Assembly (NCBI GenBank): GCA_019454045.1
Contig: SKCR01029101.1
Span: 310,001 to 374,000 of the forward strand
DNA from: Zanthoxylum bungeanum
Lineage: Eukaryota; Streptophyta; Magnoliopsida; Sapindales; Rutaceae
Direction of reading: 5' to 3'
DNA: 64,000 nucleotides
Shown: piece after piece, positions 7,884 to 53,324 of the stretch
Layout: each line of letters starts with the position of its first letter
Position numbering within the stretch: the stretch's first letter is position 1
The notes under the pieces: generated by a model
Databases searched by the model: none
What the model was told of the DNA's origin: nothing
What the model saw: only the letters and a program-made list of their open reading frames with translations
Program-made: the position numbers and the translations under genes

Positions 7884-7889
7884 CTATAG

Positions 7890-13615: not shown

Positions 13616-13627
13616 GCTCTGATACCA
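13616..13627 (-). other. Primer-binding site (tRNA-iMet type) of Copia-A
   Basis: The minus strand reads TGGTATCAGAGC, the standard plant Copia PBS complementary to the 3' end of initiator Met tRNA. It is separated by one base from the LTR that begins at 13629 on the plus strand. Confidence 0.92.
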
Positions 13628-13628
13628 T

Positions 13629-15259: not shown

Positions 15260-16044
15260 TGACCGGTACTTACACACGCGTATAACGCAAGCGCACGTAT
15301 CGTTCAAGTAGTATAAAAAGTATCGATCCCACAAGGAATTAATACCTAATCTATTAATTTTATGAGGTCAAATGATTACTTGTATCTAACAGGTTGATTG
15401 ATTGATTTGAAATTATGAAGGTTTTGATTTAAAAACAAGTAAATAAAATTGCTCGATTGTTGGTTTAAGAAAATTCAATATTAAAAACTATCTAGGGTTG
15501 TGATTTCTTCCAATATCATTTTAAAGATGAAGTGCTTATTTTATTTTTGTGTAATAAATCGGTTTACTAACCTGGAACACTAAATTATGCAAAAGCCTCT
15601 GTCGATGGTCAGACACAAATACCCAGTTTAACCCAATTGAACCATATGTCTTTGTCAACCAAATTATCTGGATTCATTAAGTTTAAGTTCCAATTATGGC
15701 TACCCCCGCCCGACAGGTATATGTCTATCCTGTAAGGAAATCTATTAAAGGGTTATCTATCCTCAAGGAAGATCGTGGACTATTGAGTCTAAGGTCTTAA
15801 ACTTAAAATCCCTATGTCTAGTTCATTTTAAGTTTCCCAGTTCAATTTTATTAATGGCCAGTTAATGAAAAAACATTAAGATTAAGACTCAATAAATATA
15901 TCTTTATATTACCCAAGCTATAATCTAACCCCTTATAAACCGGTGATATTGGATTTCATCACAACCCCAGATAACTGGCTTAGTTACGACACATATTTAC
16001 GGGTAGTAAAAAAAACTTAAATAAAATAAAAGACATAAAGTAAA

Positions 16045-16300
16045 ATACTGAAAATTAAATACTGAAAATTAAATACTGAAAAGTAAATGCTGAAAGTAAA
16101 TGCTGAAATTAAATACTGAAAATTAAATGCTGAAAGTAAATTACTGAAAGTAAATTGCTGAAAAGTAAATTGCTGAAAAGTAAATTGCTGAAAGTAAATT
16201 ACTGAAAAGTAAAAACTGAAAATTAAAGAATGAAAAGTAATGTGCGTAAAAGTAAATTACGGAAAGTAAAAACTGAAAAGTAAAGAAAAGAAAGTGCGAA
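16045..16300 (-). repeat. A-rich minisatellite in the Athila-1 3' LTR
   Basis: About 17 irregular units of 13-16 bases of the form 'taaattactgaaaag' or 'taaatgctgaaag' in a row. The 5' LTR has the same array at about 36105-36370 with slightly different unit order. The Athila-3 LTR has only traces near 44850. Confidence 0.8.
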
Positions 16301-16412
16301 AGCGAAAATTAATTACTAAAAGCTATAAATAAACAAACAAGATACAATCTTCTTAGTATTCTTAAGGAATTCCTTAGAAGAAAGTGTGAATTTTACAAAT
16401 GAAATGGCTTGG

Positions 16413-16420
16413 TATTTATA
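16413..16420 (-). promoter_or_regulatory. TATA box in the Athila-1 3' LTR
   Basis: The minus strand reads TATAAATA in a 'gcctataaatacc' context; the identical motif is at 36491-36498 in the 5' LTR. By position in the LTR it would mark the U3/R boundary of the element promoter. Confidence 0.55.
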
Positions 16421-16978
16421 GGCAAAATTTTGCCTCCATAAAATCATCCACCAAATCAATTATTAATTGCTCCACTAATTGCTCCACCAAATCCATTATT
16501 AATTGCTCCAATACTCTCTTATAATCTTTGGTGATGATTTGATAATTTATTTATTAATTTATTTTTTGCTTTGAAAATGATTGAAAATGACTTTAATAAT
16601 TACACACAACACACTTCTGGATGGTTCATCAATTTCGGGCATGAAATCGTCAGAATTCGAAATTATTTTGTCTTTCAAAGCTGTAGATCGGAGTAAAACG
16701 TTATGCCCAAAATACGACAGATGCGCAAAACTGGAATTTCCAAAACTGCACTTTGTCAAAAACACCCTTTCAAGTTTCCAATCTCTAAAATTAAAATATC
16801 AAGTCCAATAATTGCCCTTATTTGACCCATATTTCGTCCTAAATGATTTCATCGAGATCCGATATTATTTTATCTGCAAAATAAACTAAAACACATCAAA
16901 ACGTTTATCAAACCTGAGAAACTAAACAAAATATTAAGTTAAAGGGGCGGTAAATATTGATATATTTTCCGCTCATCA

Positions 16979-16994
16979 CACCCCCAAACCTAAC
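16979..16994 (-). other. Polypurine tract of Athila-1
   Basis: The minus strand reads GTTAGGTTTGGGGGTG directly before the LTR start TGATGAGCGG. A G-run tract of this form beside the 3' LTR is usual for plant Ty3-type elements. Confidence 0.8.
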
Positions 16995-18203
16995 ATTTTG
17001 CTAGTCCTCGAGCAAAACAATAAAATAAAATACAAGAAACAATTAAAATTAAACTAAGCCACTTTCGTAGGGATCACAGTTGCATTTAGCATATGCAACA
17101 AGCCTTTAAACCCCTAGGTGTCCGTAGTGGACGAGTTATAGTCTCGTGAGGGCTTACAGCAACGATACCCACAAACGTTTTACAAAAGTAAAAAGATAGT
17201 GAAACTAATGCACAGAAAAGCAAAAATACAAGAGAAAAGAGAATAAAAAAGTTAGTGACTAATCAGGTGAAACTTCTACTCCAAATCAATAGTTGTTTTG
17301 TTTCATTCTAAATTACCGAATAAGTAAATTCTCCGATTATTTTTACCATTCTCCATATACACAGTCGACAAAATATTAATCAACTCATTTTTGCCCACAA
17401 CAGTCATACGTGTAGTTGATAAGAGAGTAATATTTTTGTCCTAAAGTTCTATCAGATTTCACACCATTTTGTAACAATGGGATAATTTTTCTGATTTTTC
17501 TGATTTTTTCTTTGATTTTTCTCTATTTTTTATTTATATACAATATCTTCCATCTATGTAGCGAGTGTTGGGTCGGTGGCTCCCAAACCAGTTGGCTTTA
17601 GGGCACCAGGTGTTAAGACACCCCCAACAAACTTAATTACTCAAACTTCAGATATATATATTTTTGCAGCATCTTTGATCCATGTAACGAGCATTGGGCC
17701 AGTGACTCCCAAACCAGTTGGTTTTAGGGCACTAGGTGTTAAAACACCCTTACAGACTTAATAACTCGGATCTCAGACGTTTTTTTTTTTTTTTTTACTC
17801 CATTGTTTTTTGAGATGCCTCCTCTAATTAAACTAGATCACTGAATATTACAATCTTTTCAATATTAGCTCATGTCCGTATGTTACTATATATGTTGATA
17901 ATACATGCCAACTGAGCATATGAAGATCAATTTTAGTCCGTTTTATGGAGAATTCACAAATTAAATAATTCAAAAGGAAATAAACAAAAATTAACTTATT
18001 TCGAAAATAGGCTTGAGATACGTCTCAGGAGTGGAAAATCCTTACTCAACTATCTCTTGCCAATTTCACCCTTTTAGTCAAAATAAAAACACAAAAACGC
18101 AAAATATTTTTGTAATTTTTGAAAATTTTTCAATTTTTTGTATTTTTCGAAAAATGTTGGATTAAAAATAAAAACAACACACAAACTAAAAACAAGGTAC
18201 TGA
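16995..18203 (-). mobile_element. Athila-1 3' non-coding region with a 115-bp tandem duplication
   Basis: No coding frame. Two diverged copies of an approximately 115-bp unit ('ccaaaccagttgg.tttagggca' core) lie at about 17557-17672 and 17676-17780. They are followed by an 18-base T run near 17780. A TTTTT-rich block lies at 17487-17535. I see no captured gene here. Confidence 0.6.
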
Positions 18204-18240
18204 TCAACTAATTCCCTCCCCCAAACCTAAATGAGACATT
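18204..18240 (-). other. PPT-like motif after the cargo ORFs
   Basis: The minus strand reads a 'gacattggggataatgt' block and then 'TTTAGGTTTGGGGGAGGG'. This is the block that plant Ty3-type elements typically carry after their last ORF, so it marks the LOG-like ORF as lying inside the region the element treats as coding. Confidence 0.6.
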
Positions 18241-18312
18241 ATCCCCAATGTCTTAAAAAGTAGAAGAATAGTTTAGAAAATAATACCTGGTTAGCTGAAA
18301 TTCTACAGGAAA

Positions 18313-18966
18313 TTAAAGGTTAAGATCTAGATTAATCCTACGCCTCTTACCACGATCATCCTCAGACCAATTTATCTTTGAAAGGATAGGGTCAACTCGT
18401 GGTTCATAGGCTATGAGTTGGTCTATTAGATCCGGAGCAGTTCTGGCAGTAAAGAGGAGTTCTTTCAAAGGTTTTGACACGAACCCATTTCTCTGGGCAT
18501 CATCAAGAAACACACAAAGAAAATCATAAAATCCATCAACGTTGTACAACCCAATTGGTTTCTGGTGTATGTTCAGGTTCGCCCAAGATAGCACAATAAA
18601 AATTTCCTCCAATGTACCTAAGCTACCTGGCAAAGCAATAAAAGCATCAGCACGGTTAATCATTTCTACCAAACGTTCAGACATACCTGGCACGATCATT
18701 TCCTCTCTGTTTGATGGTTCAATAAGATTTGCTTCTGCCAAGGGTTTTGGGATGATTCCCAAAACGTGACTGCCTCCTTCCTGTACAGCTTTTGAAACGA
18801 TCCCCATAAGTCCAAGATTGCCTCCGCCATATATTAAGTGCATATTTCTTGCAGCTAAGACTCGACCCAATTCTTGTGCTGCTTCTACGTATTATGGCTT
18901 AACACCAACACTACTACCGCAAAACACACAGAAGTTTTCAACTCGTCTTCTTGAAGTGGCTTCCAT
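18313..18966 (-). pseudogene. LOG-like: LOG-like cytokinin-activating enzyme retrocopy inside Athila-1
   Basis: LOG enzymes release active cytokinin bases from their riboside 5'-monophosphates in the cytosol. An ATG at 18964-18966 opens 217 codons, the usual LOG length, with no introns although plant LOG genes are multi-intron. Residues 13-19 read CVFCGSS. A TAA (18892-18894) falls at codon 25; after it the frame is open to 18313. Seen next: IYGGGNLGLMG, then MSERLVEM, then LPGSLGTLEEI in place of the usual PGGxGTxxE. The Gly to Ser change and the loss of Lys after the motif Arg may mark a divergent subfamily or weakened activity. The C-terminus has KRRR then LDLNL, an NLS-like and EAR-like tail. 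It is in the element's sense orientation, 366 nt after the upstream ORF's stop, and ends just before the PPT-like motif. Confidence 0.88.
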
Positions 18967-19331
18967 TTTTTATATGTATTTCTTTCTCAACTCTGGATGC
19001 CTTCAAAAGTGCAATGACAGGCTGAATTTATAGTACCTGTAGAGGGTGAGTAAAAATAGCACAAGTATCTTCCAGAGGATGATTAGTAGCGAAATAATAT
19101 CATGATAGTCAAAAAGGTATGGATCATGTCGGAGAAAATAAAAGAAAGCAACAAAACAAATCACAATTATTAAGAAAAGACAAAGAGATATAAAATTTAC
19201 AAGAAAAATAACGGCTTGATTGACGTCTATGCGTCAGGGACAAGCTTCCCATCCAATTTTCTTATAAACTGGCAAACAGGGTCTTTTTGAGTTAGATTCC
19301 CAAGACTTAATTGTTGTCTTTCTTTTTGGAA
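18967..19331 (-). mobile_element. Spacer between the two cargo ORFs of Athila-1
   Basis: 365 bp without a convincing frame. It would be the 5' flank of the LOG-like ORF in an element transcript. It is A-rich on the plus strand (19080-19210), with no clear TATA box or intron border. Its right end is the stop codon of the NABP-like ORF at 19332-19334. Confidence 0.6.
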
Positions 19332-19338
19332 TTATGTA
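19332..19338 (-). pseudogene. Last codons of the NABP-like ORF, separated by Copia-B
   Basis: These seven bases supply the end of a His codon, a Thr codon and the TAA stop of the ORF at 31894-32330, once Copia-B and one copy of its TGTAA target duplication (19339-19343) are disregarded. The insertion thus hit about three codons before the natural stop and left nearly the whole protein readable on the other side. Confidence 0.75.
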
Positions 19339-19343
19339 TGTAA

Positions 19344-21966
19344 TGTAGGGGTTTTTAGGGGTGAATCTGGTAACGCAGCGGAAGCGGCGGAAGATCGTAT
19401 CTTCCGATTTCAAAACTTTTTCTCGGATTAATTAAATAAACATATTTATTTAATTATCCAATAATCAAATTATGAAATAAAATTCAAATAAATCATATTT
19501 AAGTGAATTTACCAAATTACCCTTACTTTAGTATTTTGTCCATTTTAGTCCGAAAATTGATCTAATCAATTTTGAATGATTCTAAATCATTTCTAAGATG
19601 AACTTAGCATGTTCAAAACATCAAAACACCAAAAGAACCAAAAATCCCAAATTTTTTAATCCTTGGCCGAATGCACCTCCAAGGTGCCATTTTGTGCACT
19701 TTGTCATTTCATGCATCAAAACACATCAAGATGTAATCCAATGAACATGAAACTTTATATGCATCATATACACATCCAAATACACAACATATATGAAAAC
19801 CCCCAAATTTGGAATTGGTCATGAACCCTAATTTTTCAATTTCTTCAAATTGGACAAATTAGACAAATTGGTTAAATCAACTACTTCAATCATGTTTCTT
19901 CCATCCAATCAAAGTCTCAACACAATGAAAAAACTCAAGATCAAATCTAGGTCATCTAAGAGTGGGTCAACAACTCTAGATTAGCAACATGGTTTCCAAA
20001 ACCTTAAAAGAAAGCTTATAACTACAATAGTCACAACCTTCCTTCATCATACATGCTCAACACTTCCATCAAAACTTCCATCAACAAAAACACAAGGAAT
20101 AAAGAAAGAAATAACCTAAGAACATCATATGTTAAAGCCTAGATCCTAAGGAACATTTTCCTTTCTAATAGCAAGTTGAAAAAACTCACTAAAATCCAAA
20201 CTTTCTTTGATTTCTTCTTTCTTTCTCACAAGCTTCCTTTGCTTCCATTAATGGAGTTTTTCTTTAAAGTGTATTAGGTTAAGAATTAAATGAAATGAAA
20301 AACAATATATACTTGTATCAAAATGACCTTGGCCGAAATTCACTAAAGGAAATACAAGTTTTGTAATTTCAATTTCATTTCACTTTACATTTAATCAACT
20401 TGATAAAATATCTTAATAACACTTTATAGATATTTATATAAGTCAACAAATGCAACTAAGAAGAATATAACTCTTATATTTAAGTGTTATGGCCGAAATT
20501 AATGAAAAATAAAGGAAAAAGATATTTTCATTTTCAAACAATTTTGAACAAATATCTTAAGAAGTCAAAATCAATTTGACAACCTTTTCCTTTAATGTAT
20601 AGTCAACAATTGCAACTTATAATCATTTCCTAACTTTATCATTTGGTGATATATTTATATTTTAATTATATTAATCATTTAACAATTAAATAATTAAATA
20701 ATTAATTAAATATAAATATATCAAATATATGTATTATATTTACTTTAAATATCTCAAACACATATATTCATGATATATGTCAAATACCTTTATTTGACTA
20801 TTTATTAATGTGTATTTAATAATATCATATATTAAATACAAATACACATTAATTAGGAAATGACGTTTCGGCCCGTTCGCATGTATTTTTCGTTTAACGA
20901 TTAAACGATTTATAAATAATCATCATTATTCATAAATGTTGCTCTAGTGCTCTACGAGTTTGTTTCATTATTGAGACTCTCTAGATTCAGGTATATCCGT
21001 CATGAAATCCAATTTCATGTCCATAATCTATCCACCCGTAGATTATGACGATCACAGATAAACTAGCTGAATCATACAGGTCGAGGTCATTGCATACGTA
21101 TAATCCCTCCGTCACAGGTATCCAGATAATCCCAGAGATATAGATGTAAACGTCAAATCTCTATAGGTATTATCTCGTCGACGTATCTCTTAGCAATCTC
21201 TAAATAACACTCGGAACTTACTTCCGATGTATACTGTGGCCACAGATTTAACAGACTGCTAATAATATATGGACTACCTATGCTCTGTACACAGAACTGA
21301 CGGATCCTATCTTGACACACACAGGATATACTGAGGATCGATCCACACCCAACGAACAGGCGGAGGTCTGATCTAAATAGATCGGTGACGTGACGGCCAT
21401 CTAAGTGTGGAGGATGTCTCATACATCTACAGTGGTGTCTCAAGTCGAAGGACCACTATGCTACTCAACCCGAGAAGATTCTTATTGACGTTGGCGTACC
21501 ATCCATTAAGAATCTTCGGTGAGCCGTTCAGTGTTTATCCACTATAAACACCTACACGTCTATATGAGTCTCCATAGACTCATGGTTCATTGGGATAAAC
21601 CATCGGACCAAGTCACGATATACGACATGTACTGGTCTCAACGGATTTGACTAACCGACCCGTGTTAGCAAATCTTGACCAGGAACTATGTTTGATAATA
21701 TACATATAGCAGTGACACTTCCCAATGTCAATTACAAACTAACTTTGTAACTGTGTACTGCATTATATATTATCGGGCCTTTGTCTAATATATACATATC
21801 ACTAAACTACATTTAGTTTCAATCTAATCGTAATCAGATCGAATACGTATATAAGAACAAGAGGTGCAACCATAAATAAGTAATATTATGGAATAAGGGG
21901 ATGTTCGTATTCATGAATCAGACATAAATACGGCCCGGATTGGCGCTCTGAGCACCAACCCCAACA
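19344..21966 (-). repeat. Copia-B 3' LTR
   Basis: 2,623 bp from TGTAGGGG to CCCCAACA, matched by 29269-31893. The minus-strand frame at 21153-21443 (96 codons) recurs in both LTRs but resembles nothing I know; I treat it as chance. Confidence 0.93.
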
Positions 21967-21984
21967 ATTTCTCCCACTTGCTCT
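21967..21984 (-). other. Polypurine tract of Copia-B
   Basis: The minus strand reads AGAGCAAGTGGGAGAAAT directly before TGTTGGGG. It is a variant of the tract in the Copia-A family. Confidence 0.85.
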
Positions 21985-24900
21985 AATGCCAATCCACGGT
22001 ATCATATACACGTCTCAATGTGCATCGTATGCACATGGTCCTCAAAAGCTCACCCAGTACTTAAGAGGTAGGCAACCAAAAACAAGTCCGCTATGACATA
22101 TTGAGTTTGTCAAACAAACTCTATCGTTTCCCATAGTCAGCATCATTCATATTTTGTAGAATCTAGATTATACATTAATATGACTCTGATGCTACTTCAG
22201 TATTGTGCTACAGCTACTGAGTTGTCCAAGCATTTAAGGATCAAATCCAAAATACTATGAAGACAACCGCAAACACAATAACAATTCAACACTTCTATTT
22301 TATAAGGTCACTATGCAACTTCATAAGTCAATACTTCATAAGTTGCATCTAACTCTACTCAGTTAGTAGAATCCTTCGTGACACTCCCACTGCATCTTTT
22401 GTGACTCTTTTTGACGTAGACTGTCTAACGTCATAATTAGTCTCAAAACTAATATGACCCTAATGGTTGCAGACTATATTCTCCATGAATTAGAAACTCG
22501 TTCTTAATATCTCAAAGATCATAAAGAACGTGTTTCAAGATCCATCATATGGTCTATAGGATGTCAAAATAACTCGTAACAATTACGATTAAATCAATAT
22601 CTATAATCGCACATTATAAAGTATTTATTATGTCATCATCAAATGATACATAAGATTGATTAGACATTCTAATCAATATCTCTTTCGAAAAAGGAATCAT
22701 CCTTTACGAAAAATGAATACTTTATATAAGACACACAATAACTGTCGAACAGTTATACTAAATGTCATACAGATAGCCTTGTTATGTCTCTCATTAGATC
22801 ATATCTAATGTACGACTAATAGGAGTATCTCACAAGTCTCTTGGTTTTATATCTTATATAAAACTTTATATCGTATATAAAAGAGACAACTCCCACTTTT
22901 ATCACGGAGTAAAGAAGACTTAGGTAAATCTTTTACCTCATAAACATCTCATTATTACTATAATAATGACAATGTCGTTAATATATATAACACTAGAAAG
23001 TAATATGTACGCTCCCACTAACCCTTCTAATCACATATGTATTCTCTATACTTTGACAAGATCAGACAATCTGACGATATCAAAAATAGAGAACACATAT
23101 TTCTGGAAGACTTATCCGAGTCTACAATAGGCTCTATAAGCTAGCACACTAAACTGCAATTTCAGCAGAACACAAACTCTAGGGCCAATTCAGAATGAAC
23201 TCTTCAAATAAGGAAATCACAACTGATCTCTTATCTGAATAAGTCATCCAAAAACGCCACTTTGCATTCTTTAGCTAAAATATACAGTTTATTATCAACA
23301 TTAACCAATATATCTTTAATTGTTCAATTAGTGTGACTAGAGATAAGTTTTCTCAGAATCTATAATAGATTGATGAGTATAACTTTTCTCACTGTCATAC
23401 TATAAAGGTCAAACCTTTAATAAGCTCACATTGCTTCCGTTGTGCAAACAATTAGCACATATCATGAACTAATTCATAATGAAAGCGTAATCAAGTTCAA
23501 AACTTGATCATAGTAAGCTATGAACAATCTTAGATCTAAGGTTCAATGGTGAACTTCCAGAATCGATATCAAATATCGCTTCCATTAAAAGTCATAGGAT
23601 AATTTTTCTTCAATAAGAAAACAACAGAACCATTAAGTATCAAATACTCGTGAATGATTCTGTTATCCTATTGGACTTGCACGGAAGATGTATAAGGGTT
23701 GTTTCATCTTATTAATTACATAGTTCCATTTATAATTTATCATTCTCACATTTGACTTCAATAAGTCAAGTCTTTTCTACAATAGTTAACATCTGATGTT
23801 ACACACCAAGTAATAAAACGATTTTATTACTTAGAATCGTAGGAAAGATATTCTATTAAATAGAATACAATATTCTATTAAACAGAATAAACGATAAACT
23901 TTTACTTATACCTCTGAGGTGTAAGTAATTTCCATTATATAACTATTATATAAAAGAAAGATTGAAATCTCAAACTTTTCAAGATTCAAATTTTCTACCT
24001 ATACATATCATATATGCAACTGTAGAAAATAATGGAACATTAATTAAAGAGATGAATTAGTGTTACTGGAGTATAACCCCAAGAGTATTGAAACTAATTC
24101 GGTAACTTTCAATATCAGACGAATCAAATCATATAAGATTCGATTGCTCCCACTACTCAATTCCATCAAGATGGAATCGTGGAAGAACAATATTGAATAT
24201 GAATCATATTCACTAAATAACCTTAGAACTAATTGCTTTAAATTCATACGTTTGATCGTATCAAAGATCTTTGAACAGTTCAAAGACATGTTATGAATTT
24301 TGAGGATAGAATTCTCTAAAACCTTTAGATTGAATATATTTGAACAAGTCAAAAATGTTCAATCTACGTTTCATCAGAACAGATTGAAAGTACTTGATAC
24401 TTTCAAGACTTTCAATATGTGTTCCTTCAGAAACATGTAACTAAGTTATGACAATTCATCAACTAAGTTACGAAATAAAGAAAACTACCTTAAGCAATTA
24501 TTATTTATAAAACTACATACATCCAATGTATCAGTTAAATAAATTTGGTGGTCCAATGACAATCATTGGTTAAACGAGATCTTAATCACTTTCCTGAATA
24601 CAATATTCATTAAATGGATAAGGATGTGTAGTGTGATCTAGTATCAAATCATCATTTACCATACGGAATAAGCATCCAATGCTTAAGTGATTAAATTCAT
24701 AAAGCACCGTTCTAAATTATTTACTTTACCGAATAATTTCTCTTTATGTTTATCTCTACGTCAATGACACTACTAGTTATTATAAAATATGTAACAATTG
24801 TTTATAAAGAACAAGTGACTATCCAATAGTCGCAAGTTCCGATATCAAATATCAAAACAATCGTTAACCAATATTTCAAATAACTAGACGGGAGATCTGG

Positions 24901-26122
24901 TATCCAATACCTATAGTTGTAGTATTGTGAAAATCGATATTTTCTATACACAAATATACGCATCTCATTTCTTTAGCTTTACTATTTGCATTCAACTATT
25001 CACAACAATTGTAAATAACTGATTAGCAATTGTGTCATACACATTACCTCTAAAGGTAATTAAAGCTTAGAAACGTCATTACTAGATAAACAAATACCTA
25101 ATAGGGCTTTCTTAATGCCAGTCAAGAATCTCGAGACATGAACTAATTCAAGTCAATTCAACTGCATAAGAAACTATTGTCTCTAAAGTATTATATCCTA
25201 AAAAGGATATCTATCTAGATTATCTATCATGACTTAGAAACTAAGTCATTAACCATCTTTATTTTTCAAGAAAATTGGAACAACAGTTCCCGATGGTTTA
25301 GACTAATCTAATAATATCCTAGTATATTAGTATCTAGAACCTATTCTAGAATAACTGCAACCAAGAGTCAAGACAGATAACATATCAAAATATGTGTGCA
25401 GTAAATAAAAGTTTAATTCTATCTACTATAGAATAAGGAAACAAACAAGCGGCAATTTCCATAATAACATACACTGCCTAAGTTATGGAATATTTTAAAC
25501 TTAACAGTGCCTCCCACTATTTTTACGTAATGCCGTAATCCCCAACGAAAAGACGAGAATTCAATAATTAAATCGAATTCCATAATGGGAAGAGGACCCC
25601 ATGAATATATTTCGACTCAAAGCAGAGGCACGGTCTCGCCGACGTATATTCACAGGTAGACAACTAATTGTCAATCACTCACTAGTGACTCCAAGGTTCC
25701 GGTCCTGGCCGTTTCTCGTTGTCGCTGCGAAGGCAGGCCCACAAGGAGACGTACCAAGGTTAAACTCGTCAATGATAAACTCAAGTTACTTGCGTAACCC
25801 TGACAGCTAGGGCACGTTCAGGATTCCGCTTTCGCTTGAATTTATATAGTATTTAATATACATTCGGCATAAATAAATTTCTATCAGCTACATCCTCACA
25901 GCAGAGGCACGGTCTCGGATGTAGTCAACGAAAAGATATTTATAAACCGTATTGACAAGACGGACCAAGAAACAAGTATTCCAAATACTAGTTACTTTAA
26001 AACCTTATTAAGCGGGGATATTCCATTAAGTGTCATACAACCTAAATCTAATCAAATTAGATTATAACATGCATGTATAAAGTCAAGAAAACATGATTAA
26101 ACATTGAATAAAACAAGCTAAT
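21985..26122 (-). pseudogene. Copia-B internal region, gag-pol decayed beyond reading
   Basis: About 4.1 kb of very AT-rich DNA with no frame above about 100 codons on either strand. 'acgctcccactaaccct' near 22999 matches the RT-region block at 8611 and 54094 in the other Copia elements, so this is pol-derived. A 17-base phrase gcagaggcacggtctcg occurs twice (about 25623 and 25902). The 102-codon frame at 24044-24352 shows no domain I know. The five bases 26118-26122 (CTAAT) are the target duplication of the solo LTR. Confidence 0.6.
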
Positions 26123-29100
26123 TGTAGACAACAGGAGCTGGGCGACGCCGTCCTGGGCTCGCCGGCCTGGCTGAGAAGTGTGAAATAACATGGAGTCGCC
26201 ACCCGGTGTGAACCGGGACAAAGATTTAAGGCCGCACTCACTCCTCGCAGGAGAAGACCTCAAACCGTTGGGTTCGGAATGGTCTCTTACTTTATGATAT
26301 CTTGTAATGCTTGTGATTTGTGTAATATTAACCAAGTCTACTTAGCATGCATGCTCAAGGGTACTTAGATCTAACATGCTTTCATCCAAATAATTCCACG
26401 CAATATAGCACGACGAGTACATTGGATCATGACATTAACATGTATAAATCATTACCCAAACGCATCATAAACTAATAACATGCATAAAGGACAACCTAAA
26501 TATGCTTTAACAAATAAATAACAAACTAAACTAAATCATGCTTTAAATAATAAACGAATAACCTAAAGACTATAACATGCTCAAATACAAATTCGAATGA
26601 GACGAGATATGTGTATCTTAAGTGGTACGTGGCATTGTATCCCGAGTGCAGACCGCACTACCGTCCATTCAGAATCGGCTACGGAATTTACGTCCGGGTT
26701 TCCATCCGATATACCGCAAGCAAGCACACATATTCCATTCATCCGAATCACATCACATACTACGTCATTATTTCATGCGAACAAAATAAATTACATGCCT
26801 CTTAATTCGCTAATCCATACAAATAAAACAAATTACATGCTTTCTAATTCATTAATTCATGCGAATAAAAATGACAAATTAACTAAGAAATAAATGACGA
26901 TAAATAAAATAGGTGCCCTCAGGTCTTACCTTTTAGTCGCTATCCGGGAGTGCGTTCCACGGTGCCGGAAGGGTTATCATCCCACTGTTCTCACTGATCC
27001 GTTGTTTCCGCTGTTTTGTTCGGGTTCACCGTTTTCATTATTTTCGTCCGTTTTCAACGGATTTGATGTTTTACTGTTTCCACAGGTTCACTGTTTCTGC
27101 TGTTTTGTCCGTTTTCAATGGATCCGTTGTTTCTGCCATTTTTGCTGTTTTCACTGTTCGCTGTTTCCGTCGTTTTCTCAGGTTCACTCGTTATTTTCAC
27201 TCATGATTTTTCTGTGTTTTTCCTCTATTTTCACTCGCTGTTTTCTCTCTGTATTTTAACTCAAATTCTCATTCTCTCTCTTGGATTATTCTTGGGTTAG
27301 TTTGGTCACGGTTTTGGGCTAGTTAGGGCTCGGTAAAGGGTTGTGAATTGAGGGTTGTGTGTCACGTGTGATAGTGAAGTGATTCAAGGGGTTTTATATG
27401 TGCATGATAGTGGTGAAGATGGTCATTATTCGACCGCTCTGTGCGTGCGTGAAGGTGCTCAATTTAAAGGACTAAAATGAATGGCTTTTGCGTGGATGTG
27501 TTGAACTGAGGGGCAGTGGCCTGAAATGGGCAGTGAGGCAGTGAGATGAGCGTGAACAAGGCTGTGGGCGAGCTGCGTTGTGTTCAGGTTTTCAAGGGCT
27601 GTGAGTGTTATGGTCGTGGAGGAGGAATATGTGGCGTGAGTGAGGTCTTGTGCTGTGTGCGTTTCATGGCCAGAATAAGGCTTTGCAGTGCGTGTTTTTG
27701 GTCAGTGAGAGGCTGTGTGCTTCATTTGGTTGCAGTGGCGTGCATGAAAGGAGCGGGCTGCTAGTTACGTTGTTGGAGGGCTGATGAGGGTGAGGATAAG
27801 ACTGCCATTGCCGAGAGTTGAAGTGCAGTGAAGTCTAGGGTTATTCACGTGGATGGCAGTGAGGGATGATGGTGTTCGTGGATGGTGATTGACGATGGAG
27901 GTCCTATGATGGTTCACGATGCATGGTGATGGAAGGCTGCTGTGATGGCGTGAGCTGCTGAGGCTGGGAAGTGAAGGAGTTGTTGTGTGTTCTTGGAGGG
28001 TTATTCTTGATTGTAGGTCTACATTCCTTTGTGCAATGTGCTCGGCAGTGGTGCAGTGGCTATTTTGTGATATGGATGCGCTGTGAGAGGCGTGAAGATG
28101 ATGGTGTGTGAAGTGAGCTGGCCGTAGGGGGGGCTGTGATGATTTTGTTCTAATGAGTTAGTGGTGAAGGGGCGTGGGAGCTGATGAATGAAGACTGAAG
28201 CATGAAGAGGAGTAAGGGGCTGTTTCACGTCAGTTTGATGATGATGGTGGTGGTCTTGTCTTGTTGAAGATCAGTTCTGGTTTGATGATTGTTCAAGTGA
28301 GCTTCCCATAAGGTTCATTCATGGTGCCTTGGTTGTGTCTCGGCAATGAGGGTTCTTTGAGTGCTGGTTGTGCTTGAATGGCGTCAATTGAAGGAGCAAG
28401 CAGGCTGGAGGGATCTTGGCAGAGAGAGGGGTGTCATGAAGGTTGATCATCTGCCAGAGGCATGGGCGGTTAGTGGTTGAGGCAGTGAGCAGTGTATGGG
28501 CGTGAGCAGTGTATGGGGTGTGAAGGGATAATGGTTGATTGAATGGGTTCTTTGTTTATTTGAAGAGATGTGTGGCAGTGTATGGGTGGTGATGGGGCTT
28601 CACATGGGGGCTTTTGTTGGTTAGTGTTTGGAGTTAAAAGGAAGGTGCATGGGTTGGAATGGGTTTGTCTTGATAATGGCACGTGGGGCATATTATTGTT
28701 TTGAAAATAAAATAAAAAGGAAATGGAGAGTGGGATGCATGGTGATGGCCGAATATAGGGACAAAGTGGGGAAATTAATCTGGTTTAATTAAGTTGTTAA
28801 TTTATGTGTGTGTATGGAATGTGCGAATGGTGTATTTTATTTTGTGTTTTAGTTATCCGTTATTTATGTTAAAGTTATTATTTAATTGGTTGGTAATTTT
28901 TAATGATTTAATTTAATTCAAATTAATTTAATTGGTTGGTGAATTTTAATTTGCATGGAAGTTGAAGGGTCACAAGCATGGAAAGTTAGAGAGAGAGAAT
29001 ACGTGTGAGAAAGAGCGAGGAAATGGTTCCGAGCGAAGGATGATTTTGAAAAGGAAAAGGCGACGACGAACCCGAAGCAAAACGAGCGAATAAAATCCAC

Positions 29101-29221
29101 AAAATGTCAATTTTTGACTTTTCCCTTCCGACGACCGCTTTCCGCAACTTCCGCAACTAAAAAGTAGTGCCTCCATTCGAGGCTCATCATTGGGCTGATA
29201 TGCAAAAATGCAATGCCTACA
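26123..29221 (-). repeat. Solo LTR of a Tat/Ogre-type element inside Copia-B
   Basis: TG...CA ends on the minus strand (TGTAGGCATT to TGTCTACA), 3,099 bp, with perfect TSD CTAAT on both sides (26118-26122 and 29222-29226). Its start and end align with the LTR at 45221-48408: the first 110 bases, the block at 26620-26735 (matching 47862-47960), and the terminal block at 26140-26280 (matching 48220-48340). The middle differs strongly. No internal region or second LTR remains, so it is the product of LTR-LTR recombination. Small frames at 26597-27300 and 28019-28691 are not called. Confidence 0.88.
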
Positions 29222-29253
29222 CTAATCATTTATGGAGGCCTAGAATCAGACTC

Positions 29254-29265
29254 GCTCTGATACCA
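29254..29265 (-). other. Primer-binding site (tRNA-iMet type) of Copia-B
   Basis: The minus strand reads TGGTATCAGAGC, three bases from the LTR start at 29269. Only about 30 bp of leader separate it from the solo LTR's duplication. Confidence 0.92.
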
Positions 29266-29268
29266 TTT

Positions 29269-31893
29269 TGTAGGGGTTTTTAGGGGGTGAATCCGGTAAC
29301 GCAGCGGAAGCGGCGGAAGATCGTATCTTCCGATTTCAAAAATTTTTCTCGGATTAATTAAATAAACATATTTATTTAATTATCCAATAATCAAATTATG
29401 AAATAAAATTCAAATAAATCATATTTAAGTGAATTTACCAAATTACCCTTACTTTAGTATTTTGTCCATTTTAGTCCGAAATTGATCTAATCAATTTTGA
29501 ATGATTCTAAATCATTTCTAAGATGAACTTAGCATGTTCAAAACATCAAAACACCAAAAGCACCAAAAATCCCAAATTTTTTAATCCTTGGCCGAATGCA
29601 CCTCCAAGGTGCCATTTTGTGCACTTTGTCATTTCATGCATCAAAACACATCAAGATGTAATCCAATGAACATGAAACTTTATATGCATCATATACACAT
29701 CCAAATACACAACATATATGAAAACCCCCAAATTTGGAATTGGTCATGAACCCTAATTTTTCAATTTCTTCAAATTGGACAAATTAGACCAAATTGGTTA
29801 AATCAACTACTTCAATCATGTTTCTTCCATCCAATCAAAGTCTCAACACAATGAAACAACTCAAGATCAAATCTAGGTCATCTAAGAGTGGGTCAACAAC
29901 TCTAGATTAGCAACATGGTTTCCAAAACCTTAAAAGAAAGCTTATAACTACAATAGTCACAACCTTCTTTCATCATACATGCTCAACACTTCCATCAAAA
30001 CTTCCATCAACAAAAACACAAGGAATAAAGAAAGAAATAACCTAAGAACATCATATGTTAAAGCCTAGATCCTAAGGAACATTTTTCTTTCTAATAGCAA
30101 GTTGAAAAAACTCACTAAAATCCAAGCTTTCTTTGATTTCTTCTTTCTTTCTCACAATCTTCCTTTGCTTCCATTAATGGAGTTTTTCTTTAAAGTGTAT
30201 TAGGTTAAGAATGAAATGAAATGAAAAACAATATATACTTGTATCAAAATGGCCTTGGCCGAAATTCACTAAAGGAAATACAAGTTTTGTAATTTCAATT
30301 TCATTTCACTTTACATTTAATCAACTTGATAAAATATCTTAATAACACTTTATAGATATTTATATTAAGTCAAAAAATGCAACTAAGAAGAATATAACTC
30401 TTATATTTAAGTGTTATAGCCGAAATTAATGAAAAATAAAGGAAAAAGATATTTTCATTTTCAAACAATTTTGAACAAATATCTTAAGAAGTCAAAATCA
30501 ATTTGACAACCTTTTCCTTTAATGTATAAGTCAACAATTGCAACTTATAATCATTTCCTAACTTTATCATTTGGTGATATATTATATTTTAATTATATTA
30601 ATCATTTAACAATTAAATAATTAAATAATTAATTAAATACAAATATATCAAATATATGTATTATATTTACTTTAAATATCTCAAACACATATATTGATGA
30701 TATATGTCAAATACCTTTATTTGACTATTTATTAATGTGTATTTAATAATATCATATATTAAATACAAATACACATTAATTAGGAAATGACGTTTCGGCC
30801 CGTTCGCATGTATTTTTCGTTTAACGATTAAACGATTTATAAATAATCATCATTATTCATAAATGTTGCTCTAGTGCTCTACGAGTTTGTTTCATTATTG
30901 AGACTCTCTAGATTCAGGTATATCCGTCATGAAATCCAATTTCATGTCCATAATCTATCCACCCGTAGATTATGACGATCACGGATAAACTAGCTGAATC
31001 ATACAGGTCGAGGTCATTGCATAAGTATAATCCCTCCGTCACAGGTATCCAGATAATCCCAGAGATATAGATGTAAACGTCAAATCTCTATAGGTATTAT
31101 CTCGTCGACGTATCTATTAGCAATCTCTAAATAACACTCGGAACTTACTTCCGATGTATATTGTGGCCACAGATTTAACAGACTGCTAATAATATATGGA
31201 CTACCTATGCTCTGTACACAGAACTGACGGATCCTATCTTGACACACACAGGATATACTGAGGATCGATCCACACCCAACGAACAGGCGGAGGTCTGATC
31301 TAAATAGATCGGTGACGTGACTGCCATCTAAGTGTGGAGGATGTCTCATACATCCACAGTGGTGTCTCAAGTCGAAGGACCACTATGCTACTCAACCCGA
31401 GAAGATTCTTATTGACGTTGGCGTACCATCCATTAAGAATCTTCGATGAGCCGTTCAGTGTTTATCCACTATAAACACCTACACGTCTATATGAGTCTCC
31501 ATAGACTCATGGTTCATTGGGATAAACCATCGGACCAAGTCACGATATACGACATGTACTGGTCTCAACGGATTTGACTAACCGACCCGTGTTAGCAAAT
31601 CTTGACCAGGAACTATGTTTGATAATATACATATAGCAGTGACACTTCCCAATGTCAATTACAAACTAACTTTGTAACTGTGTACTGCATTATATATTAT
31701 CAGGCCTTTGTCTAATATATACATATCACTAAACCACATTTAGTTTCAATCTAATCGTAATCAGATCGAATACGTATATAAGAATAAGAGGTGCAACCAT
31801 AAATAAGTAATATTATGGAATAAGGGGATGTTCGTATTCATGAATCAGACATAAATACGGCCCGGATTGGCGCTCTGAGCACCAACCCCAACA
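29269..31893 (-). repeat. Copia-B 5' LTR
   Basis: 2,625 bp, TGTAGGGG to CCCCAACA, near-identical to 19344-21966. Its right end truncates the NABP-like ORF: the frame runs on into the LTR and adds unrelated residues before a stop near 31845. Confidence 0.93.
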
Positions 31894-32330
31894 TGTAATT
31901 TGCGAATGGCTATGTGAACATATCCCCTGGGATGCGTCTCAAGATTTAAAGATATATCATCTAAAGACTCCTTACTCAAGCCATCCCTAATGAATTTAAT
32001 TTTGTCTTCGCGATTATCAGACACCATTCCTAAAGAACGATAACGAGTATTGCAATTCCAGCGTGCACATTTGTAACAAACACCCATTTGTTTAGCTCTA
32101 CATTTTTTTGCATAGGTGCTTCTTCCAAAACCAGGCAGATGTGAAATAAAAGAGTCTGAAGACTCACCTGCCAATCGGACTCGTGCTTCAATTACCCAAC
32201 GAATGTCATTAGGAATACCTTTGATCATCAGTAGTCTCATCCGTTCCAAGCGAGCTTTGTAGACTTTCATCAGAGATTTTTGAGGGAGAGAAGGAAATTG
32301 CTTGCGAAGATTTGCGAGAGCTTCTTCCAT
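31894..32330 (-). CDS. Carlavirus-type nucleic-acid-binding-protein-like ORF captured by Athila-1
   Basis: The ATG at 32328-32330 opens 147 codons if the seven bases beyond Copia-B are counted; into the Copia-B LTR the frame runs to 31845. About residues 65-120 show a Lys/Arg-rich stretch (GRSTYAKKCRAKQMG) leading into CYKC, then a third Cys, then C-x4-R where I expect C-x4-C, then a PG/LG-type turn and a KFIRDGL helix. This layout fits the cysteine-rich nucleic-acid-binding proteins encoded last in carlavirus genomes, which bind RNA/DNA and in some viruses modulate host silencing or transcription. The N-terminal 60 residues are longer than usual for that family. The fourth Cys is Arg, so zinc binding may be impaired. 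It follows the integrase relic, in the extra-ORF position of Athila. Alternative: an unrelated plant zinc-finger fragment. Confidence 0.6.
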
Positions 32331-32516
32331 CGTGAAATGACTAAACCTGCAAAAATTAAACACACAAAAATAAAACACACCAGATCACAATATATACAAA
32401 AATTGAATGGGTTGCCTCCCTGCGAGCACTAAGTTTAAAGTCGTCAGCTAGACGTGACTTCTCGAATGTTAGGCTAGATATGAAAGTGTGACACTTTCTT
32501 TTTGTTGCTCAAATGA
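32331..32516 (-). mobile_element. Athila-1 segment between the integrase relic and the cargo ORF
   Basis: 186 bp, non-coding. The minus strand contains 'cgcagggaggcaacccattc', the kind of block that follows integrase in Athila elements. This places the junction with the captured ORF at roughly 32340-32400. Confidence 0.55.
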
Positions 32517-32910
32517 TTATCCCCAGTAGTGCTTAACACGCTTGTTTTTAACCTTGAAAGTTTTGTTGGAGTCAGGATCATGTATCTCAACGGCTCTGTC
32601 TGGTAAAACCTTGGTAATCACAAATGGACCTGACCACCGTGATTTTGGCTTCCATGGGAAGAATTTCCCCCTTGATTTGTTTAACAGTACATTCTGCCCT
32701 GGTTCCAGTTGTATGCGCACTATCTCTCATCTTGTATTTTCCTTGCCTTTTCCTTGTACAATTTGGCATCCTCAAAAGGCTGTATGTGAAATTCCTCCAA
32801 TTAGTTGAGCTGGTGGAACTTTTTCTCTTCTGTTGCTTGTAGTGCAAGAATAGGCTTCTTCAGTACGTAGTGCGCTTTATCTTCAGGCTCCACAGGTAAT
32901 TGACATGCTT
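32517..32910 (-). pseudogene. Athila-1 integrase C-terminal domain fragment
   Basis: At 32517-32720 the minus strand reads the integrase tail: 'KSRWSGPFVI' (GPY/F-type module), 'LPDRAVEI' and a basic end. At 32801-32910 the gag-protease frame runs straight into 'ACQLPVEPEDKAHYVLKK', the integrase segment just before the C-terminal module. A frameshift lies near 32800 between the two. No catalytic DDE residue remains, so the protein is not functional. Confidence 0.8.
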
Positions 32911-35215
32911 TAAGTTTGTCAGTAGAACTTTGTTTTTTATCAGAGTTCTGAACGGTACTATGTATCACATCAAGTCTGAAACATTCTTCCTTCTTTTCAT
33001 CATCTGGGAAATTCATGGCTTTGAAAACATTGAATGTTACTTCTTGGTCTTGTACCCTCATGGTTAGTTCTCCTTGTTATACATCAATAATGGTTCGACC
33101 TGTAGCCAAGAATGGTCTCCCGATGATGATTGGCACGTCTGCGTCTTCCTCCATATCAAGGACAATAAAATCTGCTGGGAAAATGAATTTGTCAACCTTG
33201 ACCAGCACATCCTTAACTACGCCTCTTGGAAATACGAGTGTTCTATCAGTAAGTTGTAGTGAGACTGAAGTGGGCATTGTTTCTCCAATCTGCAGTTTCC
33301 TGAAAATAGAAAAAGGCATCAAGTTAACACTAGCACCTAAATCACACAGAGCCTTACCGAAGTCATGTTCTCCTATTGTGCAAGGAACAGTGAAACTGCC
33401 AGGATCTTTCAACTTTGGAGGAAGTTTTCTCTGAATGATGGCGCTGTATTCTTCTGATAATGCTACTGTCTTATAATCTCCCAATCTCTGCTTTCGTGAA
33501 AGAATGTCTTTCATGAATTTGGCATAGCAGGGCATTTGTTCCAACGCTTCTGCAAATGGAATGTTGATATGCAGCTTTTTGAACACCTCCAAGAATCGAG
33601 CAAACTGCTTGTCAAGTTTATTCTTCTGAAGACGCTGAGGAAAAAGTGGAGGTTGAGTGATCTGCTCTTTTTCCTTTGCTTCTTTTTCCTCCATCTGTTG
33701 CTTTGTTTCTTTTGGAAAATCTTCAATTGTTGTTGCCTTGATTCCAACATCTTTGTTGATTTCAGTACCGCTTTTTAACATGATGGCATGACATTGCTCC
33801 TTCCCCATGTTCCTTGGATTTGGCTCTGTGTTGTTAGGAAGGGTACCTGGCGGTCTGTAACTCTGAGCATTGGCCAGTTGTCCAATTTGATTCTCCAGTG
33901 CTTTAATAGAAGCTGATTGACTTTGAATTAATGCTGCTTGGGATTGAAACATAGCATCATATCTTGATGCTTGAGATTGAAACATAGCATCATATCTTGT
34001 TGCTTGAGAGTCGTGTTTTGCTTCTATCTTTTTCAAGTGGGTCAACACTTCTGTTATTCCTGGTTCATTTTCCTATTCCTGGCTTTTGTTCTGTTGTTGG
34101 AATCCGGGTGGTGGATTATTCATTTGCCCTGAATTGTTGCTCCATGTGAAATTGGGATGATTCCTTCACCCTGGGTTGTAGGTGTTAGAATATGGATTGG
34201 TCCCCTGTCTGTTGAAATTATTGACATAATTAACCTTTTCTTTATGTTGGTTGAAAGATTCTGACTCAGGTGCTCCTCCAAATGGTGAACTTGTGGATCC
34301 ACCATTAACTTTTATGTTAAGAGTTTCCAAATTTTTGCAAATCACATCCAGCTTGGAATTCAGTGCTGTGTTGGCTCCAACTTCATAAATTCCTGCAATT
34401 CTTTGGATCATGCTCCTTTCAGTTGGCCATAAAGAATTGTTGTTGGCCATTTCTTCGATTAGGTCACAGGCTTCATCTTCTCCTTTTGCCATTAAAGCTC
34501 CTCCAGCAGCAGCATCGATTGTGGTTCTCATTATTCCAGAAAGTCCATTATAGAATGTTTGGACTTGAAGCCATTTTGGAATCTCATGGTGAGGACATTT
34601 CCGGAGCAAATCTTTGTACCTTTCTCAAGATTCGTAGAGGGATTCTGAATCTTGTTGTACAAAGGATGTGATGTCATTCCTCAGCTTTCCGACTCTGGCT
34701 GGTGGAAGGTACTTTGCAAGAAATTTGGTGGCTAAAGTGTTCTAAGTTGTGATAGAACCTGCTGGTAGTGAATGTAGCAAAGCTTTAGCTCTATCCTTCA
34801 AGGAGTATGGGAAAACACGCAGTCTCATTGCTTCTTCTGATGCTCTGTTTTAGTTGAAAGTGCCGCAAACTTCCAGGAAGTTACTGATGTGGGCATTAGG
34901 ATCTTCAGTTGCATTCCCCCCGAATTGAACTGACTGCTGAATCATCTGAATGTATGTTTTGATGTCACATGCATTTTCTGGTAAGGGAAGAAGTACAATA
35001 CAGGAAATGAGTCTGTCAACCACCGGAATGGTTCTGTCTCGAATAGGAATTGGTGGTGCAACCTCCAACGGTTCAGGTTCCATGTTGACTAAAGCTTCTT
35101 GGCCTTCTCGCCTTTTCCTTCTCCACTGTCTGATGGTTCTTTCAATTTCTGGGTCAAGCGATCGGAGTTCAAAACTTCTGGTTCGTCTCATGTAGTTTCT
35201 GAGAACCTGAAACAC
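32911..35215 (-). pseudogene. Athila-1 gag-protease relic, RT-integrase core deleted
   Basis: One minus-strand frame runs from about 35215 through gag ('QSVQFGGNATEDPNAHI' near 34900, 'WLQVQTFYNGL' near 34570) to the aspartic protease ('LCDLGASVNLMPFSIFRKL' near 33320 and the 'IIIGRPFLATG' flap near 33110). Only stops interrupt it: near 34850, 34625, 34166 and 33074-33079 among others. After the protease tail ('VTFNVFKAMNFP', about 33020) the frame passes within 40 codons into the integrase C-terminus. Athila-2 has about 2.5 kb of RT, RNase H and integrase at that point, so the deletion is internal and in frame. Confidence 0.85.
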
Positions 35216-35298
35216 AAGAAAACAAAGACAATAAGTAAAAAGAAATTAGATACAAGTAACGTATCTAACCCCAAAATTAATAGTGAAAGATAAATAAG

Positions 35299-35316
35299 TC
35301 CCCAGCAAAGGCGCCA
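35299..35316 (-). other. Primer-binding site (Asp-tRNA-like) of Athila-1
   Basis: The minus strand reads TGGCGCCTTTGCTGGGGA, six bases after the LTR end. It differs at two positions from TGGCGCCGTTGCCGGGGA, the form usual in Athila/Tat elements. 35317-35322 is the spacer. Confidence 0.8.
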
Positions 35317-35322
35317 AAAACT

Positions 35323-37112: not shown

Positions 37113-37117
37113 GGGGT

Positions 37118-37509
37118 CTATCCAGAGCGAAGCTGTTTCCCGTACCATCGGTAAAACACAACCTCCTATTACACTTGTATTAGTATCATATACCCAAATA
37201 TATGAGAACTATGCCGTTTGTGCCCTCACAACGCGCACAAGTGTAATACTAGTCTTTTACGCATTTATCGATGTTCAATCTCGATAATACTCTGACTAGG
37301 GATATATAATGATTTATCCTTCGTGGATTGATACTGTCTCATATCATTCTAAATCCAGGAACAAATCATAAGGACCTCCTATCATTTATATATCTTGGTG
37401 ATCTAATCACAAATGATAAGAGTGCAATCTCCTTTTTCATATAGTTAATTTGTACAACAACACCATGATCTGTACAAATAGTGACGCTATGGGTCATAAT
37501 TTTCCAACA
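37118..37509 (-). repeat. Copia-A 5' LTR, second part
   Basis: Continues the LTR broken at 15259, starting 'ctatccagagcgaagctg' and ending TTTCCAACA. It aligns base for base with 2062-2453 and similar stretches. The 73-codon minus-strand frame at 37366 is a shadow seen in other copies. Confidence 0.9.
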
Positions 37510-37538
37510 CATAGCCGATCTGCTAACATGCGGCGTGC

Positions 37539-38237: not shown

Positions 38238-38445
38238 GATACCGCTATATTGGTCGGTTGGTAATTCATTTTAATCTGGTTTAAACCTGACTAATCAAGG
38301 ATACCGCCAGATTGGTCGGTTGGTAATTAAACTTTCTTACCGCCTATATGGCAGGTTCATGGACAAATCTTTTTACCGCCTTAATGGCTGGTTGGACTTA
38401 ATTTGACTTAATCAGGTTACCGCCTATATGGCTGGTTGGTAATGT
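38238..38445 (+). repeat. 'taccgcc...ggctggttggtaat' short repeats in the Athila-2 LTR
   Basis: Five diverged units built on 'taccgcc-tatatgg-(c/t)ggttggtaat', spaced 35-70 bp apart. The same units, reverse complemented, lie at about 44978-45120 in the Athila-3 LTR. Confidence 0.7.
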
Positions 38446-53318: not shown

Positions 53319-53324
53319 ACGTAG

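What the first reader, a model, noticed from the sequence alone, without database searches (positions are those of the whole stretch)
18313..32330. A defective Athila element carrying two cargo genes: a virus-like nucleic-acid-binding protein and a cytokinin-activating LOG
Disregarding Copia-B, Athila-1 reads gag-protease, integrase tail, a 147-codon NABP-like ORF, 365 bp, a 217-codon LOG-like ORF, PPT-like motif, LTR, all on the same strand. Athila elements normally keep an envelope-like or unknown extra ORF here. A transcript from the 5' LTR would carry both cargos. Both types of protein can plausibly change cell proliferation or defence (carlavirus cysteine-rich proteins act on host transcription or silencing; LOG makes active cytokinin), so their pairing may not be chance. 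The pairing's purpose is inference; the arrangement is in the sequence.
Basis: partly seen in the sequence, partly recalled or inferred. Interest (0 to 1): 0.92.

Follow-up and report, generated by a model that had tools for sequence, protein, structure and literature searches.

The report
Jumping gene carrying two accessory genes
A dead plant jumping gene here belongs to a very large family whose members often carry, side by side, a virus-like nucleic-acid-binding protein gene and a plant-hormone-activating enzyme gene, and both look preserved by natural selection, so the element probably uses them.

Summary
The pair is real and not an accident of one copy. The window holds an Athila-type Ty3/gypsy element (15259-37112, minus strand) whose 3' region encodes a carlavirus-NABP-like protein and, about 260 bp on, a LONELY GUY (LOG)-like protein. 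Both are broken here: the NABP ORF (182 codons in relatives, not 147) is split by the nested element and stopped; LOG has an in-frame stop and an altered PGG motif. In the 3.96-Gb host genome one exact LOG 22-mer occurs 18,612 times (reversed control 0). NABP lies upstream on the same strand in 38 of 48 profile-picked LOG loci and 11 of 19 informative loci picked without a score; 17 of the 18 others keep flanks of a lost NABP. Score-free dN/dS is 0.28 (LOG) and 0.41 (NABP). The LOGs end in a basic stretch plus LxLxL (91 of 120 nearest relatives listed; 0 of 120 LOG3/LOG1-like cellular LOGs), like an NLS plus EAR motif. LOG in gypsy elements was reported before; my ten paper searches showed no report of the NABP, the pair or the tail. 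Function is inferred: silencing suppression plus local cytokinin or transcriptional control.

The parts
15259..37112 (-). Athila-1, the whole host element, inserted in a tandem satellite array
   Evidence: LTR pair 92.97% over 1791 columns, 55 mismatches; G-run target duplication and an empty satellite monomer at about 60996-61000
35322..37112 (-). 5' LTR
35298..35316 (-). primer binding site (TGGCGCC... type; its assignment to tRNA-Asp is recalled)
   Evidence: sequence next to the 5' LTR
33077..34072 (-). gag (3' part) and protease open frame
   Evidence: ORF; weak Asp_protease_2 E 0.02, below its cut-off
32517..32726 (-). integrase C-terminal remnant; no RT, RNase H or integrase core was seen between it and gag-protease
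   Evidence: tblastx to the integrase ORF of L001; Integrase_p58_C E 0.065, below its cut-off; ORF list
31894..32330 (-). NABP-like ORF, first part (about codons 1-145 of 182)
   Evidence: PF01623 E 4.8e-5; tblastn 88% to P0001
19344..31893 (-). nested LTR element ('Copia-B'), LTRs 19344-21966 and 29269-31893, inside the NABP gene; 5-bp duplication at 19339-19343 and 31894-31898
   Evidence: (LTRs 98.86%)
19230..19343 (-). NABP-like ORF, last part (about codons 145-182), beyond the nested element
   Evidence: tblastn 94.7% to P0001 residues 145-182
18968..19226 (-). NABP-LOG spacer, conserved among copies (235-263 bp in the 35 copies measured)
18316..18966 (-). LOG-like frame of 217 codons, in-frame stop at 18892-18894, PGG motif altered, C-terminal basic + LxLxL tail
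16979..16990 (-). polypurine tract next to the 3' LTR
15259..16978 (-). 3' LTR

Best explanation
The window holds one dead copy of a very abundant plant LTR-retrotransposon family of Athila type whose 3' region, downstream of integrase, is a two-gene accessory module: a 182-aa zinc-finger-like nucleic-acid-binding protein of the carlavirus NABP kind, then about 250 bp on a 217-aa LOG-type cytokinin riboside 5'-monophosphate phosphoribohydrolase with a basic tail ending in an LxLxL (EAR-like) motif. Shown: the anatomy, its repetition across the genome, dN/dS well below 1 on both ORFs, the shared tail, and a LOG-only subfamily that most likely lost NABP by deletion. Inferred, and my most likely mechanism (about 40%): NABP binds RNA and blunts host RNA silencing of the element, as related viral NABPs are said to do, while LOG makes active cytokinin in the cell where the element is expressed and so favours a dividing, meristem-like state in which new copies are inherited. 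The tail would bring LOG into the nucleus and may recruit TOPLESS-type corepressors. The confidence given covers the whole: anatomy and family about 0.95, selected function for both ORFs about 0.8, this mechanism about 0.4.
For: Family: 18,612 exact LOG 22-mers; in the 150 scored PF03641 hits I read a stop in 3 rows; the 150 scored NABP hits are 90-99% identical to P0001, with a stop in 28 rows as I count them. Pair: 38 of 48 profile-picked LOG loci and 11 of 19 score-free informative loci have NABP upstream on the same strand; spacer 235-263 bp in 35 measured. Selection, score-free: LOG dN/dS 0.28 (0.22-0.36, n=19), NABP 0.41 (0.37-0.46, n=10); profile-picked: LOG 0.23 (n=42), NABP 0.35 (n=20), integrase 0.13 (n=8) as yardstick. 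NABP of the window versus L001: dN 0.23, dS 1.23. Viral kinship: of 24 NABP relatives 23 match Carla_C4 and 22 Viral_NABP at E 0.01. LOG fold: best PDB match Arabidopsis At2g37210; PGGxGTxxE kept in 34 of 34 gap-free full-length profile-picked copies and 88 of 98 database relatives of 200 aa or more. Tail: 91 of 120 versus 0 of 120; LxLxL in 79 of 93 against a shuffled mean of 2.1; predicted unstructured; L-D-L-N-L kept in 16 of 19 score-free copies and LxLxL in 28 of 34 profile-picked ones.
Against: No expression, enzyme, localisation or silencing data. In the score-free sample the last 33 codons of LOG are only weakly constrained (dN/dS 0.54, 0.33-0.90). Most score-free copies are decayed: as I read, 3 of 19 LOGs and 2 of 11 NABPs are full-length without stop or gap, and no locus has both. 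In 7 of 19 score-free loci NABP is gone while LOG remains, so the two need not act together. The NABP model is weak (pLDDT 67, pTM 0.34) and its viral fold matches are not significant (best E 0.75). The cellular comparison set covers only LOG3/LOG1-like proteins. 10 of 98 database relatives lack the full PGGxGTxxE motif. A related element, L001, carries NABP with no LOG in the 983 bp that follow.
Confidence: 0.6

Rival explanations
1. Passenger genes: a virus-related NABP and a host LOG transcript were captured and spread only because the element was successful; the ORFs are not needed by it.
For: LOG-only copies are common without NABP (7 of 19; 10 of 48); most score-free copies are decayed; gene transduction by plant elements is known (PMC7264820, part 1 of 3 read).
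Against: dN/dS well below 1 for both ORFs in both samples; NABP alignable across many plant-type sources, mean column identity 54% in 24 and 44% in 73 relatives; active-site motif and tail mostly kept.
Confidence: 0.15
2. Only LOG's tail or fold matters: LOG is an EAR-type corepressor recruiter or a nucleotide-pool enzyme, and cytokinin plays no part.
For: Basic + LxLxL tail in 91 of 120 relatives, 0 of 120 cellular; tail disordered in the model.
Against: The core (codons 54-184) is the most constrained part (0.16 profile-picked, 0.23 score-free), the tail region the least in the score-free set.
Confidence: 0.2
3. NABP serves the element's own RNA: a nucleocapsid-like or envelope-replacing chaperone rather than a silencing suppressor.
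For: Position after integrase, where Athila elements carry 3' extra ORFs (PMC11728184 and PMC6317226, passages); four-cysteine cluster in 93 of 114 relatives.
Against: A LOG-only subfamily exists without it; sequence similarity is to viral NABPs, and the two best, non-significant, viral fold matches are named silencing suppressors.
Confidence: 0.25
4. The two ORFs came by separate late insertions into this copy alone.
For: None found beyond the nested element in this copy.
Against: Same order and strand in 38 of 48 and 11 of 19 loci, spacer 235-263 bp in 35.
Confidence: 0.01

Closest known systems
Gypsy elements with a LOG-type (YgdH) domain in Citrus and Populus (PMC9289625, section 12 read; it cites Steinbauerova et al. 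2011, not held, whose abstract I recall as naming two Athila-like elements similar to LOGL4)
   Same: LOG-type ORF in Ty3/gypsy elements of plants
   Different: No NABP partner, tail, copy number or selection estimate stated in what I read
Carlavirus and related nucleic-acid-binding cysteine-rich proteins (Pfam PF01623, PF05515)
   Same: Basic stretch plus cysteine cluster; profile match over about 30-90 residues
   Different: 182 aa with a conserved C-terminal part, encoded by a retrotransposon in plant DNA
Plant cellular LOG3/LOG1 (At2g37210, PDB 2a33)
   Same: Fold and PGGxGTxxE motif; 46% identity over the aligned part of the modelled relative P0121
   Different: One uninterrupted reading frame in the element; basic + LxLxL tail absent from 120 of 120 LOG3/LOG1-like relatives listed
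AlkB-bearing orchid Ty3/gypsy elements (PMC9289625, abstract and section 12 read)
   Same: Captured enzyme ORF in a lineage of gypsy elements
   Different: RNA demethylase rather than hormone enzyme; no second cargo mentioned there

Membership tests
Athila clade (Ty3/gypsy, OTA) | LTR element structure: LTRs, PBS, PPT, target duplication | tested here: met
   (duplication only a G-run, read with the empty site)
Athila clade (Ty3/gypsy, OTA) | Ty3/gypsy integrase upstream of the 3' ORFs in family copies | tested here: met
   integrase hits upstream in many, not all, of the 48 loci; rve and H2C2 domains in L001
Athila clade (Ty3/gypsy, OTA) | RT/RH/INT phylogenetic placement in Athila rather than Tat | not tested
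   window copy lacks RT and RH; no reference set used; the Athila name rests on the PBS and layout, recalled
Athila clade (Ty3/gypsy, OTA) | extra ORF(s) between pol and the 3' LTR, sense strand | tested here: met
LOG phosphoribohydrolase | LOG family profile and fold | tested here: met
   PF03641, TIGR00730; PDB fold match of P0121. The NF058542 equivalog cut-off is not reached (101 of 300 bits)
LOG phosphoribohydrolase | PGGxGTxxE motif | tested here: inconclusive
   kept in 34 of 34 gap-free profile-picked copies and 88 of 98 relatives; not met in the window copy
LOG phosphoribohydrolase | releases free cytokinin base from its ribotide | not testable with these tools
   needs an enzyme assay
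Carlavirus-type NABP | Carla_C4 / Viral_NABP profile | tested here: met
   window: PF01623 above cut-off, PF05515 just below; 23 and 22 of 24 relatives at E 0.01
Carlavirus-type NABP | same three-dimensional fold as viral NABPs | tested here: inconclusive
   weak model; best viral matches E 0.75-4.8
Carlavirus-type NABP | nucleic-acid binding or silencing suppression | not testable with these tools
   needs a bench assay
EAR-motif repressors | LxLxL motif | tested here: met
   91 of 120 relatives; LDLNL in 16 of 19 score-free copies
EAR-motif repressors | binds TOPLESS-type corepressors | not testable with these tools
   no data

The most novel reading that the evidence does not exclude
A plant retrotransposon lineage evolved a two-protein host-manipulation module, as retroviruses have accessory genes: a virus-type silencing suppressor plus a nucleus-targeted LOG enzyme whose EAR-like tail couples cytokinin production to TOPLESS-type repression, and this helped it reach well over ten thousand copies in a 4-Gb genome.
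Probability: 0.25. Interest if true: 0.92.

Novelty: new variant of a known kind. Interest (0 to 1): 0.77.

Why it matters
Plant LTR retrotransposons are usually treated as gag-pol parasites; what their extra 3' ORFs do is largely unknown. Here the extra ORFs have recognisable identities, a hormone-activating enzyme and a viral-type nucleic-acid-binding protein, show dN/dS well below 1, and occur in very large number. That makes the question 'do retrotransposons manipulate host hormones and silencing?' directly testable. It also bears on where the carlavirus-type NABP gene came from, and warns that some annotated LOG genes (for example Populus proteins named LOGL10 with the same tail) may be transposon genes.

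Tried and rejected
NABP or LOG relatives in viral contigs: three scans, none confirmed. Genome contigs with the NABP alignment: one locus, L001, a plant-like contig inside a bacterial MAG, with a 466-aa integrase ORF and an intact 182-aa NABP but no LOG in the 983 bp that follow. NABP against PDB sequences: nothing significant (best E 0.44). NABP fold against viral models: not significant. Co-occurrence in other plants rests on coincidence of contig lengths in the tables (P0031/P0235, 4,511 bp; P0107/P0221, 66,318 bp and 14 contigs each), which is circumstantial; two other shared lengths (1,022 and 950), found by eye, I judged chance. The dN/dS values are invalid (codons misaligned across insertions) and crashed; replace them. 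A genome-wide count for an NABP 22-mer was asked for and never answered; a search for the host's own LOG gene was planned and not made.

Rows dropped or at issue: L060 (wrong side fetched, so 19 of 20); L030's NABP (opposite strand, a neighbour) counted as absent; copies with gaps in the ORF left out; ten of the eleven pair loci used for NABP (L068 holds only a piece). L006/L007 and L018/L019 give the same match tables and may be allelic or duplicated contigs, so neither the 48 loci nor the 18,612 places are all independent. Sampling bias: the 48 loci come from the best LOG-profile scores, which lowers LOG dN/dS in codons 54-184. The score-free 20 come from the exact LOG 22-mer list, so they favour copies with that stretch.
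Full report
What is there. Athila-1 spans 15259-37112 on the minus strand, with LTRs at 35322-37112 and 15259-16978, a TGGCGCC-type primer site beside the 5' LTR and a G-rich tract beside the 3' LTR. The flanks are satellite-like repeats, and an uninterrupted monomer near 60996 shows the empty site. The LTRs align at 92.97% with 55 mismatches in 1791 columns, about 3% substitution, so an insertion of the order of one to two million years on commonly used plant rates (recalled). A gag-protease frame runs to 33077 and a short integrase C-terminal remnant follows; no RT, RNase H or integrase core was seen between them.

The cargos. A nested LTR element (19344-31893, LTRs 98.86% alike, 5-bp duplication) sits inside the first cargo. 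Residues 1-147 of the relative P0001 match one side and 145-182 the other. 182 residues is the commonest length among the 120 relatives listed (44 of 120). The window's 147-codon reading is therefore a broken gene: an insertion, a stop beside it, and a lost cysteine. The LOG-like frame at 18316-18966 has a stop at codon 25 and PGS in place of PGG. This copy can make neither protein whole.

Identity. The NABP piece passes Pfam's Carla_C4 cut-off and falls just below that of Viral_NABP. Among 24 relatives, 23 and 22 match these families at E 0.01. 216 relatives were found at E up to 1 and 120 listed; those with organism names are Xanthoceras, Populus, Acer, Orobanche and Rhamnella. The LOG piece matches PF03641 and TIGR00730. 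A model of P0121, 86% identical to the window's piece, fits Arabidopsis At2g37210 with TM 0.92-0.93 by target. The stricter NCBI LOG equivalog cut-off is not reached.

The pair across the genome. One exact 22-mer of LOG occurs 18,612 times, the reversed control 0 times; duplicate contigs may inflate this. Of the 150 scored PF03641 hits 3 rows show a stop, and of the 150 scored NABP hits 28 do, as I count the tables; these are the best-scoring hits only. In 48 loci from the best LOG hits (8 cut, 40), NABP lies upstream on the same strand in 38; the spacer is 235-263 bp in the 35 measurable. Because those loci were chosen by score, I took 20 more from near the head of the 22-mer list; one was fetched on the wrong side. 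Of the 19 left, 11 have NABP upstream (one of them only a piece), 7 have a short leader-spacer layout without it, and 1 is truncated. Among the ten NABP-less loci of the first set all ten keep spacer sequence, and four keep a 62-base NABP remnant between leader and spacer or before the spacer (L002, L003, L004, L021). All seven in the second set keep leader and spacer, and two keep that remnant (L064, L069). The LOG-only subfamily therefore most likely arose from pair-bearing elements by deletion, perhaps once. If the score-free share (11 of 19) held for all 18,612 places, about ten thousand pairs would exist; this is an extrapolation from a small sample.

Selection. In the score-free sample dN/dS is 0.28 (0.22-0.36, n=19) for LOG, 0.23 for its core, 0.54 (0.33-0.90) for the last 33 codons and 0.41 (0.37-0.46, n=10) for NABP. 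In the profile-picked sample LOG is 0.23 (n=42), with 0.16 for the core and 0.34 for the last 32 codons, NABP 0.35 (n=20) and integrase 0.13 (n=8), its C-terminal part 0.28 (n=17). The earlier profile-picked run gave 0.22 and 0.38. Nei-Gojobori counts over all pairs mix selected and post-insertion change, so the active lineages are probably under stronger constraint than these figures, the profile bias on LOG apart. The NABP of the window and of L001 gives dN 0.23 and dS 1.23; dS is near saturation. Copies open in both frames exist: 9 of 48 profile-picked; none of the 19 score-free loci, as I read.

The tail. LOG relatives of the window's piece end in a basic stretch followed by LxLxL: 91 of 120 listed, against 0 of 120 relatives of At2g37210. 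Shuffling the last 30 residues gives a mean of 2.1 of 93 against 79 observed; the relatives are not independent. The tail is unstructured in the model. In the tree, 25 sampled tailed-set LOGs (the window's among them) and 15 LOG3/LOG1-like proteins are two fully supported sides. Only part of cellular LOG diversity was sampled, and most tailed database proteins were not shown to lie in elements; 106 of the 120 carry no NCBI source and come from ena, jgi or lgn records (my count), as would be expected of abundant intronless copies, against 10 of 120 for the cellular set (my count). LxLxL as an EAR motif, and TOPLESS as its partner, are recalled knowledge.

Mechanism. Shown: anatomy, abundance, joint carriage, constraint, tail. 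Inferred: NABP as silencing suppressor or RNA chaperone; LOG as local cytokinin source; tail as nuclear targeting and corepressor recruitment. The LOG-only subfamily says the two can act apart. L001 shows NABP without LOG after a 466-aa integrase ORF, which hints that NABP came first and LOG was added; with one outgroup locus this is weak.

Known and new. LOG-type (YgdH) domains in Citrus and Populus gypsy elements are stated in PMC9289625 (section 12 read), which cites Steinbauerova et al. 2011 (not held; abstract recalled). PMC7264820 (part 1 of 3 read) and PMC6317226 (passages) describe extra ORFs without mention of an NABP in what I saw. PMC11728184 (passages) describes other Athila extra ORFs in sunflower. 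PMC3136472 (passages) treats integrated RNA-virus genes; the passages do not mention this one. The search listings showed me no report of the NABP in a retrotransposon, the pair or the tail; most subscription papers are outside that library and supplements could not be read.

Noticed in passing
window 19344-31893: The nested 'Copia-B' has 2.6-kb LTRs but only two ORFs of 100 aa or more wholly inside it, neither clearly gag-pol by eye, so it looks non-autonomous; a tRNA-Met-like primer site (recalled motif) next to 29268 puts it on the minus strand, like Athila-1.
   Followed up: partly
window 38288-45131: A second Athila-like element on the plus strand (LTR, gag-protease, integrase to 44073) is cut off at an LTR fragment of opposite orientation; tblastn found no NABP or LOG there.
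   Followed up: partly
window 1-15258, 37113-37510 and 49365-61392: Long arrays of related repeats of roughly 2 kb flank the elements, plus a 177-bp tandem repeat at 46771-47506.
   Followed up: no
L001 1-3330: A contig filed under a Candidatus Nomurabacteria MAG is plant-type retrotransposon DNA (integrase and NABP), so that MAG appears contaminated.
   Followed up: partly
P0167, P0176, P0214 (protein list): Populus proteins named LOGL10 carry the same basic + LxLxL tail as the retrotransposon LOGs and may be transposon genes annotated as host genes.
   Followed up: no
L002, L003, L004, L008, L021, L023, L028, L030, L036, L049 and L056, L062, L064-L067, L069: LOG-only copies without NABP keep spacer and mostly leader remnants; whether this subfamily depends on paired elements is open.
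   Followed up: partly
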